Of a DNA stretch of 64,000 bases, positions 5,660 to 62,805 are shown piece after piece (positions within the stretch are counted from its first letter, which is position 1; every line of letters starts with the position of its first letter). The DNA is taken from positions 1-64,000 of the forward strand of contig JAUIJB010000004.1 in assembly GCA_030430455.1 (NCBI GenBank), written 5' to 3'. The notes beneath the pieces were generated by a model, which was given only the letters and a program-made list of their open reading frames with translations, was not told the origin of the DNA and ran no database searches. The DNA is from Verrucomicrobiia bacterium (GTDB lineage: Bacteria > Verrucomicrobiota > Verrucomicrobiia > Verrucomicrobiales > Akkermansiaceae). Both the position numbers and the translations under genes were made by a program.

Positions 5660-6144
5660 TTCGGGTTGGGGGCAGGGGGGCGGAGCCGTTTGGCAGCGCG
5701 GGCCGGGTGGAAAGCGCCGCGCGGGCAACCAAGCGGCTGAAGAGAACAAGCGGAGCACAGGGCATAAGACCTATAGGACCGATGGGACCGATATGGCGTG
5801 AGGCTGCGCCTCACCCTTGAGCGCAGGTCGCCGCCGGACGGCAAGCTCGCGCCTCGCCCATCTTCGGAGCGCAGGGACCGACACTGCGGAGCCCAAGAGG
5901 TGCTCCCATAGGTCCTATAGGTCCCATCTGTCCTATTCCCTGCACTCCGCGACCTCTTCACAGCCGCTAAGTCGCCCAACCAGCGCTTTCCAGCCGGTCC
6001 GCACCGCCAACACGCCTCACGACACCTTCACTCCCCAGCCACTCACTGCCCAACCAGCGCTTTCCAGCCGGTCCGCACCGCCAACACGCCTCACGACGCC
6101 TTCACTCCCCAGTCGCTCACTGCCCAACCAGCGCTTTTCAGCCG
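5660..6144. repeat. Long nested palindromic element, copy 1
   Basis: The core at 5689-6011 is an imperfect palindrome. Its outer arms (5689-5716 and 5983-6011) pair at about 24 of 28 positions. Its inner arms carry repeated TAGGTCCTATAGG-like words (about 5763-5793 and 5907-5936), and a perfect hairpin GTGAGGC-TGC-GCCTCAC lies at 5798-5814. A matching element lies at 61747-62067; the segment around 5858-5920 is almost identical between the two. The right arm is tandemly amplified with a 74-bp period (see separate entry). It fills the 607-bp gap between the methyltransferase and tricorn genes. Open frames across it are Arg/Ser/Tyr-rich artefacts of the repeat. Confidence 0.85.
5974..6144. repeat. 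74-bp tandem repeat (2.3 copies)
   Basis: Units start at 5974, 6048 and 6122, each opening with GCCCAACCAGCGCTTT. The first two copies are full length with a few substitutions; the third breaks off after about 23 bp. Each full unit contains the right outer arm of the long palindromic element, so this end of the element has been amplified. The second copy of the element at 61747 does not show this. Confidence 0.9.
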
Positions 6145-6181
6145 CCACCTCACCCCAGCCGTGCCGCTCCGCCGCCCACCC

Positions 6182-40230: not shown

Positions 40231-40350
40231 GGGGGAAGGGCTGGCCGGCACCGCTGCGCCCCGGCCGGGGTCGGATGGCGTGACGGCACCCACGGCAACG
40301 TCGCGTTGCTCCCCAAAGTTTCGCTACCGAAAGCCGAGATCCTAATAACA

Positions 40351-40400
40351 GGACACACCTTTAATCGGGACACACCTTTAATCGGCAATGATTCTTGCCG
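40351..40400. repeat. 17-bp direct repeat and hairpin before RAYT
   Basis: The 17-mer GGACACACCTTTAATCG occurs twice in tandem (40351-40367 and 40368-40384). It is followed by a hairpin CGGCAA-TGATTC-TTGCCG at 40383-40400. This lies 30 bp upstream of the RAYT gene, where such transposases usually have their recognition palindromes. It may be the left end of the element. Confidence 0.7.
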
Positions 40401-40429
40401 GTGGTTGGGGTGGGTAGTAGGGGTGGGGC

Positions 40430-41476
40430 ATGGCGAGGGCACGGTGGATCGCTCCGTGGAGCGAATCGAAGAGCAAGCCGGCGGTGTATCACCTGATTTC
40501 ACGGGTGGTGGAGCGGCGCTTCGCCTTCGGGGCGGAGGAAAAGGAGAAGTTCCGCACGCTGATGCGCATGACCGAGAAGTTTACCGGCTGCCGGGTGCTG
40601 AGCTACTGCATCATGTCCAACCACTTCCACATCCTGTTGGAAGTCCCACCCAAGGGTGCCCTGGCGCTTTCCGACGAGGATCTGCTGCGCCGGGTCGCGG
40701 TGTTTTATCCGAAATGGAAGGTCGCCGAGTTGGAGGAACGGCTCGCGGCGGCAGCGGACTCGCCGGCGCTGCACGCCGAGCTGGTCGAGGCCTACGCCTA
40801 CCGAATGCACGACCTCAGCGAGTTCATGAAGATGCTGCTGCAGCGCTTCTCAAGCTGGTTCAACCGCCGGCACGAGCGTCGCGGACGGTTGTGGGAGCAG
40901 CGCTTCAAGAGCGTGCTGGTGGAGAACGGCACGGCGGCGCGGACGATGGCCACCTACATCGACCTGAATCCCGTAAGGGCCGGCATTTCCCAGGATCCGG
41001 CGGAATATCGCTGGAGCAGCTACGGCGAGGCGGTGGGCGGGGGAGGAAAGGCGCGTGCCGGCCTGGTGCGGGCGTGGCGTGGTCACGAGGGCGTGGCGGG
41101 AACGGCCCGCGGCTGGTCGCAGGGCGGGCTGTCGCGGCAGTATCGGATGGTGCTGATCGGGCAGGCGGCGGAAGTCCGGGCGAATGGCGAAGTCCGCCGG
41201 ATCGGCATGCCGGTGGAACGGGCGAGGCGCGAGCGTGCCGAGCTGGATGCCACGGAGCGCGACCTGCGGATCTCGCGGGTGATCCGACACCGGGTGCGCT
41301 ATTTCACGGATGGGGCCGTGATCGGCGGGCGCTCGTTTGTGGACGAAGTGTTCGCGGAGTGCCGGGAGTTCTTCGGTCCGAGGCGCAAGAGCGGCGCGCG
41401 GAAGCCGCGCGGGTCGCTGTCAGAGCTGGCCGGCGAATTGTGGACCGCGCGGGATTTGCGGGTCGAGACAGGTTAG
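40430..41476 (+). CDS. REP-associated tyrosine transposase (RAYT)
   Basis: This 348-residue protein belongs to the Y1/IS200-like HUH transposase superfamily. The metal-binding motif MSNHFHILLEVP is at about residues 59-70, and the catalytic tyrosine is probably that of ATYIDLNPVRAGI (about 165-177). Length and layout fit the RAYT clade, which is thought to have been domesticated and to act on REP palindromes. A single intact copy is present, with repeats on both sides. Confidence 0.9.
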   Translation: MARARWIAPWSESKSKPAVYHLISRVVERRFAFGAEEKEKFRTLMRMTEKFTGCRVLSYCIMSNHFHILLEVPPKGALALSDEDLLRRVAVFYPKWKVAELEERLAAAADSPALHAELVEAYAYRMHDLSEFMKMLLQRFSSWFNRRHERRGRLWEQRFKSVLVENGTAARTMATYIDLNPVRAGISQDPAEYRWSSYGEAVGGGGKARAGLVRAWRGHEGVAGTARGWSQGGLSRQYRMVLIGQAAEVRANGEVRRIGMPVERARRERAELDATERDLRISRVIRHRVRYFTDGAVIGGRSFVDEVFAECREFFGPRRKSGARKPRGSLSELAGELWTARDLRVETG

Positions 41477-61227: not shown

Positions 61228-61668
61228 TCATGGATGGAGGTGGATTTCCCAGGCGTCGGAGATCGGGCCGTCGGAATCGAAGTAGTGCGTCGCGGTCGGG
61301 TGACCGCTGGGTTCGAGGACGAGCTTGGCGAAGCGCGGCCGCGGCTCGCGGTCGCGCCAGGTCACGTCGATGAACACGCTCGGGTGACCGGGCTCGAGCT
61401 CGAGGGTGCCGCTGAGGGTCTCGGCCGCGGGATCGATGGCCTGAACCGCACCGCCCGCCTCGAGCGTGACGGACTCCGCCGGCTCGGAGAGGGTGAGGAC
61501 GAAGGGCGTCGGAATGCCGGGCTCCGCGGCCGCCTCGTGCGGCGCGGTCGCGTCGCCCGGCGGCACGACCGCCGGCTTCGGCCGGCGGTTGAGGTGAACC
61601 AGGACCATCGCCGCCAGGATCAGGGCGATCCCGGTGGCCAGCGTCCGGATCAGGGGTGAGCCGCGCAT
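61228..61668 (-). CDS. Membrane-anchored protein next to metal ABC genes, unknown
   Basis: This 146-residue protein has one N-terminal helix (about 8-25) and a periplasmic beta-rich domain that ends in histidines (SDAWEIHLHP). It is the first gene of the metal transporter unit, upstream of the ATPase. It does not look like a ZnuA-type binding protein, being far too short and without the His loop. Possibly a periplasmic accessory, but no family is recognised. Confidence 0.6.
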   Translation of the reverse strand: MRGSPLIRTLATGIALILAAMVLVHLNRRPKPAVVPPGDATAPHEAAAEPGIPTPFVLTLSEPAESVTLEAGGAVQAIDPAAETLSGTLELEPGHPSVFIDVTWRDREPRPRFAKLVLEPSGHPTATHYFDSDGPISDAWEIHLHP

Positions 61669-61719: not shown

Positions 61720-62112
61720 GGGGTGGGGTGGGTGGGGTGGGGGCCGGTTGGCGGTGCGGACCGGCTGGGAAGCGCGGGTTGGGTGGTGAGCGGCTGCGAG
61801 AACAAGCGGAGCACAGGGCATAGGTCCTATGGGTCCTATGGGACCTATCTGGTGTGAGGCTGCGCCTCACCCCTTTAGTTGGGGCGGCGCCGGAAGGTGA
61901 GGTCCCGCCCCACCCATCTTCGCAGCGCCAGGGCCGACACTGCGGAGCTCAAGAGGTGCTTCCATAGGTCCTATAGGACCCATAGGACCTATTTCTTGCG
62001 CTCCGCCACCTCGCCCCAGCCGCTTGGTCGCCAAGGCGGCGCTTTCCAGCCGGTCCGCACCGCCAACACGCCCCACGCCACCTCCACCCCGAGCCGCTCA
62101 CCGCCTGCCCCA
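61720..62112. repeat. Long nested palindromic element, copy 2
   Basis: The core at 61747-62067 is an almost perfect palindrome at its ends: the outer arms (61747-61775 and 62039-62067) pair at 28 of 29 bases. The inner arms of TAGGTCCTAT words (61820-61848 and 61964-61992) also pair at 28 of 29. A central hairpin GTGAGGC-TGC-GCCTCAC lies at 61854-61870. The flanking G/C-rich tails resemble those of copy 1. It fills the 477-bp gap between trpF and the gene ending at 61228. Reading frames across it are repeat artefacts. Confidence 0.9.
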
Positions 62113-62145: not shown

Positions 62146-62805
62146 TCATTGCTTGGCTGGCTGCACCGCCTCCAGCAGCCTCGCGACCTTGTCGAAGTCC
62201 TTGATGCCCGGGGCGGACTCGGCCCCGGAGGCGATGTCGATCGCGGCCGGGCTCACCCGGGCGACAGCATCGGCGGCGTTGTCCGGGGTGATTCCGCCGG
62301 CGAGGATGACCGGGCGTTGCGGATGCCCGGCGATGAAGCGGGCGACCGCGTCCCAGTCGATGGTCCGGCCGGTGCCGCCATAGACCCCCGGCGCGTGGGC
62401 GTCGAGCAGCAGGGCATCAGCCGGGAAGCCAGCGGCCTGCTCCAGGTCGGCGTCGTCGCGGATGCCCAGCGCCTTGATCACCGGGATCCCGACCTCGCGC
62501 AGGCAGCGGGCGTCCGCCGGCGACTCGTCGCCGTGGAGCTGCACCGCATCGATCAGCCCGTGGTCGATGAGCCGGCGCGGCTGGTCGAGCGGGGGATTCA
62601 CGAACACGCCGACGCGCAGGATCCGGCCGGCCAGCTCACGCAGGAAGCCGGCGTCGGTCTCGGCGAGGAAACGCTTCGACTGCGGCCAGAAGTTGGCCCC
62701 CAGGGCGTCGACGCCGAGATCGGCGAGACGCCGGGCGTCATCGGGCCGGGTCACGCCGCAGATCTTCAGGGCCGTGGCCGAGGGGTCGAGGAAGCGCTTG
62801 AGCAC
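62146..62805 (-). CDS. trpF: Phosphoribosylanthranilate isomerase
   Basis: This 219-residue TIM-barrel enzyme makes the third step of tryptophan synthesis. The motif KICGVTRPDDARRLADLGVD (about 14-33) contains the catalytic cysteine, and the general-acid aspartate is in LLLDAHAPGVYGGTG. The phosphate-binding region is ILAGGITPDNA and IDIASGAESAPGIKD. No other trp gene is adjacent. It diverges from uvrA with a 65-bp gap. Confidence 0.95.
   Translation of the reverse strand: MLKRFLDPSATALKICGVTRPDDARRLADLGVDALGANFWPQSKRFLAETDAGFLRELAGRILRVGVFVNPPLDQPRRLIDHGLIDAVQLHGDESPADARCLREVGIPVIKALGIRDDADLEQAAGFPADALLLDAHAPGVYGGTGRTIDWDAVARFIAGHPQRPVILAGGITPDNAADAVARVSPAAIDIASGAESAPGIKDFDKVARLLEAVQPAKQ

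What the first reader, a model, noticed from the sequence alone, without database searches (positions are those of the whole stretch)
5689..6011. Nested ~320-bp palindrome with TAGGTCCTAT words, matching copy at 61747-62067
Two distant intergenic gaps hold elements of the same design: outer arms of about 29 bp, inner arms of repeated TAGGTCCTATAGG-like words, and a shared central hairpin GTGAGGC-TGC-GCCTCAC. The inter-arm segment around CACTGCGGAGC...CAAGAGGTGCT is nearly identical between copies. Copy 1 has diverged at its left arm (24/28), while copy 2 keeps 28/29 in both arms. No gene explains them, they are much longer than REP hairpins, and I know no named family. They may be non-autonomous mobile elements, structured RNAs, or chromosome-organisation sites.
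Basis: seen in the sequence. Interest (0 to 1): 0.72.

Follow-up and report, generated by a model that had tools for sequence, protein, structure and literature searches.

The report
Dispersed intergenic palindrome, probably mobile repeat
The two look-alike palindromes are members of a family of 29 full-length DNA repeats, found only in this bacterium, that have spread into gaps just behind genes, probably as small passenger mobile elements that depend on an enzyme not yet identified.

Summary
Both copies belong to a dispersed repeat with 29 full-length members in this 4.22-Mb draft genome, plus solo arms and short derivatives. Each is ~335 bp: two inverted ~110-bp arms, each ending in a 9-bp word array (ATAGGWCCY), around an asymmetric ~115-nt core. 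The core is absent from 17 congeners and 240 genomes of the order. Copies sit just behind stop codons. Orthologous sites in congeners are empty: trmB-comEC spacer 358 bp here against -24 to +18 nt in 9 of 12 relatives; trpF spacer 478 against 58-61 nt in 7 of 9. So it inserted and multiplied recently, as a MITE/REPIN-like non-autonomous element would. No enzyme was found: 0 of 20 local Y1-transposase (RAYT) loci carry its motifs. Copies are mosaics, with linkage lost beyond ~100 nt. Selected RNA pairing is not supported for the arms and at most weak in the core. Unexpectedly, the word arrays alone recur in unrelated phyla, 2-77 matches per genome, reversed control zero.

The parts
5682..6016 (+). 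Copy 1 of the composite palindromic repeat (orientation set by its core)
   Evidence: 81% to copy 2 over 1-333 of 335; core 129 bits with model R1
5690..5792 (+). Copy 1 left arm, ending in degenerate words
   Evidence: inverted repeat I1, 73% with 5908-6010
5790..5912 (+). Copy 1 core with hairpin GTGAGGC-TGC-GCCTCAC at 5798-5814
   Evidence: model R1 match; exact hairpin
5908..6010 (+). Copy 1 right arm, starting with the word array ATAGGTCCTATAGGTCCCAT
6017..6147 (+). Extra outer-arm (74-bp) units tandemly repeated outside copy 1
   Evidence: direct repeat 5974-6026 / 6048-6100, 98%; sequence
61740..62074 (+). Copy 2 of the composite palindromic repeat
   Evidence: query; one of 29 full-length copies in the genome
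61740..61848 (+). Copy 2 left arm: outer arm plus words 61819-61848
61846..61968 (+). Copy 2 core; hairpins 61854-61870 and GGAGC..GCTTC 61944-61962
   Evidence: model R1, 146 bits; alignment A1
61964..62074 (+). Copy 2 right arm: words 61964-61992 plus outer arm
62146..62805 (-). trpF (PRAI); its stop codon borders copy 2 on one side
   Evidence: Pfam PF00697; empty orthologous sites
61228..61668 (-). Small conserved gene downstream of trpF; its native upstream region (CCGCAAAC...CTTGCA) is retained beside the insertion

Best explanation
A lineage-specific, non-autonomous, MITE/REPIN-like mobile repeat. The unit is an inverted dimer of a ~110-bp arm around an asymmetric ~115-nt core. It carries no gene and multiplied to 29 full copies by copying into intergenic gaps, with survivors just behind stop codons because insertions elsewhere are selected against. 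A trans-acting enzyme, not identified, moved it. Afterwards copies exchanged segments by recombination or gene conversion, so they are mosaics. SHOWN: copy number, genome specificity, empty sites in relatives, position behind stop codons, mosaicism. INFERRED: transposition as the copying route, an enzyme acting in trans, purging by selection, and DNA-level (cruciform or single-strand) recognition of the inverted arms.
For: 29 cores in the own genome and none above chance in 17 congeners and 39 other relatives; no core in 240 genomes of the order. Flanks unrelated between copies. Empty sites: trmB-comEC spacer 358 here vs -24..+18 in 9 of 12 congeners; trpF-to-next-gene 478 here vs 58-61 in 7 of 9, native GACCGG...CCGCAAAC flanks retained. 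Position: about 17 of 28 copies lie within 25 bp of a stop codon; 12 convergent, 13 tandem, 3 divergent, convergent share above the window baseline (p 0.02). Sense:antisense to tandem genes 6:7, so no strand preference. Mosaics: L002/L007 have 0 differences in 187 columns and 29 in the other 125 (P 3e-13); r2 falls from 0.082 to 0.046, the unlinked level. Solo arms and core-less hairpins exist.
Against: No transposase, no autonomous relative, no clean target-site duplication: the outer ends are blurred by variable 74-bp units. None of 20 own Y1-transposase loci carries the motifs. The PHI test for recombination was not significant, and low linkage could partly reflect a star-like burst with recurrent mutation. 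The baseline for gene context comes from one window and a home-made gene caller. The genome is a 150-contig draft, so an autonomous copy may be unassembled.
Confidence: 0.75

Rival explanations
1. A functional bidirectional transcription terminator or 3'-end insulator that was recruited behind genes; the palindrome works at the RNA level in either direction.
For: Position directly behind stop codons and in convergent gaps; strand-neutral palindrome; no orientation preference (6:7).
Against: No U-tract: 0 and 1 terminator-like sites in the two copies, near shuffles. Relatives do without any element at the same gene pairs. Own arms pair no better than foreign arms, and GU:AC mismatches are 169:144, so pairing is not visibly selected in RNA.
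Confidence: 0.12
2. A canonical REPIN/BIME moved by a RAYT (REP-associated Y1 transposase).
For: Inverted doublets with a conserved spacer, solo arms as remnants, intergenic; the genome has 21 Y1_Tnp matches, one in the window.
Against: 0 of 20 own Y1 loci and 0 of 30 from word-bearing genomes hold the motifs. Two word-bearing Desulfomicrobium MAGs have no Y1_Tnp match. Arms are ~110 bp, not 20-40 bp, and have no GTAG/CGTC tag in what was read.
Confidence: 0.1
3. A conserved structured RNA (the core) carried by the repeat.
For: Core is the best-conserved part (88% mean column identity); helices 8, 9 and 11 have compensatory changes, e.g. G-C to A-U in L024 and G-C to C-G in L025/L028; helix H2 own-vs-cross p 0.002.
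Against: Core alone folds no better than shuffles (z -0.84); few independent events; no Rfam match; no homologue in relatives.
Confidence: 0.08
4. A chromosome-organisation or protein-binding site (e.g. nucleoid protein, recombination site).
For: Palindromic 9-bp words repeated with constant spacing; nearly constant element length (301-303 in most copies).
Against: Absent from all 17 congeners, which is odd for a core chromosomal function; order and replichore position not testable on 150 contigs.
Confidence: 0.04

Closest known systems
REPIN (REP doublets forming hairpins, PMC3116915)
   Same: inverted doublet with spacer, gene-less, intergenic, many copies, singlets as remnants, tandem clusters
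   Different: arms ~110 bp with nested words; no RAYT flanked by the motifs
MITEs and intergenic repeat units such as ERIC/RU-1 (127 bp) (PMC10969869, PMC2229807, PMC2759123)
   Same: small, non-coding, inverted terminal repeats, intergenic, mobile in trans
   Different: no parent transposon found, no clear target-site duplication, variable outer 74-bp units
GTAG-/CGTC-tagged REP dimers (PMC3733652), reported there also in O. terrae
   Same: palindromic units paired as dimers, often with conserved spacers
   Different: much larger; tag not recognised here
Pneumococcal BOX elements (from own knowledge)
   Same: modular, with repeated inner units, intergenic
   Different: unrelated sequence; here an inverted dimer

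Membership tests
REPIN/RAYT system | REP unit present in the non-coding flanks of a RAYT gene | tested here: not met
   0 of 20 own Y1_Tnp loci
REPIN/RAYT system | Inverted doublet with spacer, dispersed in intergenic space | tested here: met
REPIN/RAYT system | GTAG- or CGTC-type tag beside a 20-40-bp hairpin | tested here: inconclusive
   no tag recognised by eye at the words or the outer arm; no systematic test
MITE | Non-coding, under ~600 bp, multi-copy, inverted repeats at both ends | tested here: met
MITE | Insertion difference between relatives (empty orthologous sites) | tested here: met
MITE | Target-site duplication | tested here: inconclusive
   ends blurred by variable 74-bp units
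MITE | Ends shared with an autonomous transposon | tested here: inconclusive
   no pair of arms far enough apart to enclose a transposase gene was seen in the draft; DDE transposases were not searched
Structured non-coding RNA | Rfam family match | tested here: not met
Structured non-coding RNA | Covariation beyond chance | tested here: inconclusive
   10 pairs with double changes vs 5.2 shuffled, but arms uncorrelated within copies

The most novel reading that the evidence does not exclude
The 9-bp word array (ATAGGWCCY)3, a 29-bp nested palindrome, is itself an undescribed class of dispersed miniature repeat shared by unrelated phyla (Verrucomicrobiota, Planctomycetota, Acidobacteriota, Aminicenantes, Desulfomicrobium, WOR-3) and spread by an unknown, widely distributed machinery that does not need a Y1 transposase; the 335-bp element is a lineage-specific composite that captured it.
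Probability: 0.3. Interest if true: 0.75.

Novelty: new member of a known kind. Interest (0 to 1): 0.5.

Why it matters
It adds a genome-specific family of composite palindromic repeats with direct empty-site evidence and strong signs of exchange between dispersed copies, a handle on how gene-less repeats persist. The cross-phylum word arrays raise a testable question: what machinery writes the same 29-bp sequence into genomes of unrelated phyla, including in frame within peptide-synthetase genes?

Tried and rejected
RAYT link: scanned 20 own and 30 other Y1_Tnp loci for words and arms, none. Y1_Tnp counts across the order: nearly ubiquitous (197 of 230) while words are in 28 of 230. Neighbour genes shared by word loci of different phyla: none apart from peptide synthetases and chance pairs. 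Viral contigs, phages, plasmids: no match. Rfam: nothing. Covariance-model search for diverged cores in 57 relatives: two E ~0.007 hits treated as chance. Arm pairing as selected RNA: rejected. PHI recombination test: not significant; linkage decay and pairwise mosaics used instead. Word sequence in papers: 0 hits. Gene context of the word arrays in other phyla could not be judged with a crude ORF caller.

Full report
OBSERVATION. The two palindromes are present at the stated places and are far beyond chance: the exact 17-nt hairpin occurs only at 5798-5814 and 61854-61870 (expected 0.04) and the words 13 times (expected 0.13). The arms are longer than reported: 103 nt at 73% in copy 1, and 43 nt at 88% plus 36 nt at 92% in copy 2. 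One DNA strand of copy 2 folds with z -10.1.

FAMILY. In the window's own genome (4,224,097 bases, 150 contigs) the 335-bp sequence has 29 full or nearly full copies, and a model of the core finds exactly 29. There are also solo arms (L044-L049) and short forms such as L043, a near-perfect ~107-bp hairpin without core. Orienting all copies by the core gives one layout: left arm, word array, hairpin GTGAGGC-TGC-GCCTCAC, ~115-nt core ending in GGAGC..GCTCC, word array, right arm. The arm-to-arm length is 301-303 in most copies, about 293 where one 9-bp word is missing. Mean column identity is 88% for the core and 81% overall. Outside the arms a 74-bp unit (the outer arm) is repeated up to about twice.

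DISTRIBUTION. The core is absent from the 17 congeners and other relatives searched and from 240 genomes of the order (best hits E about 0.003, short). No match in plasmids, phages or viral contigs.

INSERTION. Between trmB and comEC this genome has a 358-bp spacer holding the element; nine of twelve congeners have -24 to +18 nt. Between trpF and the next gene, where copy 2 of the window sits, the distance is 478 here and 58-61 nt in seven of nine congeners; the native GACCGG after the stop codon and CCGCAAAC...CTTGCA before the next gene are retained on either side. In other congeners the same gaps hold different palindromic or unrelated insertions. These are insertions of this lineage in gaps that tolerate them. 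Neither ancestral spacer shows an obvious terminator hairpin, so a taste for terminators as targets is not supported there.

POSITION. Copies lie just behind stop codons: about 17 of 28 within 25 bp, 12 in convergent gaps, 13 tandem, 3 divergent, of which one follows a tRNA gene. Convergent share is above the window's baseline (p 0.02, rough). Against tandem genes the orientation is 6 sense and 7 antisense. Neighbours include nadA, trmB, comEC, efp and trpF, so copies sit in the core genome.

STRUCTURE TESTS. If the arms were kept paired by selection, arms of one copy should fit each other better than arms of different copies. They do not (0.938 and 0.938, p 0.6). On the strand defined by the core, G-U and A-C mismatches are 169 and 144 (28 and 25 columns), so no RNA strand is favoured. 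The arms look like two inverted copies of one repeat that drift independently. The core shows a few double changes consistent with small hairpins, with helix H2 better within than between copies (p 0.002, but from two related copies). The core alone is no more stable than shuffles (z -0.84).

MOSAICISM. Pairwise identities of neighbouring segments are nearly uncorrelated (Spearman -0.16 to 0.38). L002 and L007 are identical in core and most of the right arm (0 differences in 187 columns) while the rest has 29 in 125 (P 3e-13). Linkage between variable sites drops from r2 0.082 within 30 nt to 0.046 beyond 100 nt, the level of unlinked sites (none of 2000 permutations as steep). The PHI test was not significant; a star-like burst with recurrent mutation could give part of the pattern, but not the block identities.

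MECHANISM. The best reading is a gene-less element that copied itself with an enzyme acting in trans, was kept where harmless, and was shuffled by recombination. The enzyme is not identified. The obvious candidate, a RAYT, was tested: the genome has 21 Y1_Tnp matches, one in the window at 40430-41476, but none of 20 such loci holds a word array, outer arm or GCGGAGCRCAGGG motif, nor do 30 loci from other genomes with words. Two word-bearing Desulfomicrobium MAGs have no Y1_Tnp match. So it works like a REPIN or MITE but fails the defining test of the REPIN/RAYT system (definition: PMC3116915).

THE WORDS ELSEWHERE. A degenerate 29-mer of three words hits 23 contigs from Sedimentisphaerales, other Planctomycetota, Acidobacteriota, Aminicenantes, Desulfomicrobium, Opitutaceae, a deltaproteobacterium and WOR-3. 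In 13 of these genomes the two-word pattern has 2-77 matches with zero for the reversed pattern, and in this order 28 of 230 genomes have it. Flanks differ. Six arrays lie in frame inside peptide-synthetase adenylation regions, encoding RSYRTYRTY-like inserts before YKTGDL, possibly spread there by module duplication. No paper in the library prints the sequence. Whether these arrays share a machinery with the present element is open.

Noticed in passing
L097, L100, L102, L105, L107, L110: ATAGGWCCY word arrays lie in frame in peptide-synthetase adenylation regions of Acidobacteriota and Aminicenantes, always in the loop before YKTGDLARW.
   Followed up: partly
window 40340-41476: A RAYT-like Y1_Tnp gene (40430-41476, +) is preceded by a direct repeat GGACACACCTTTAATCGG; the genome holds 21 Y1_Tnp matches.
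   Followed up: partly
L148 and L149, trmB-comEC gap: Two congeners carry a different palindrome (GTACTGGACCGCGGACTTTAGTCCGC...) in the same gap where this genome has its element.
   Followed up: no
L178, trpF-downstream gap: Congener G007 has an unrelated ~385-bp insertion at the site of window copy 2.
   Followed up: no
L040 and L041: A second, related short repeat (words plus GGGGTTCGGCTNGGCCTCACCC), tandem with 133-bp period in L040.
   Followed up: no
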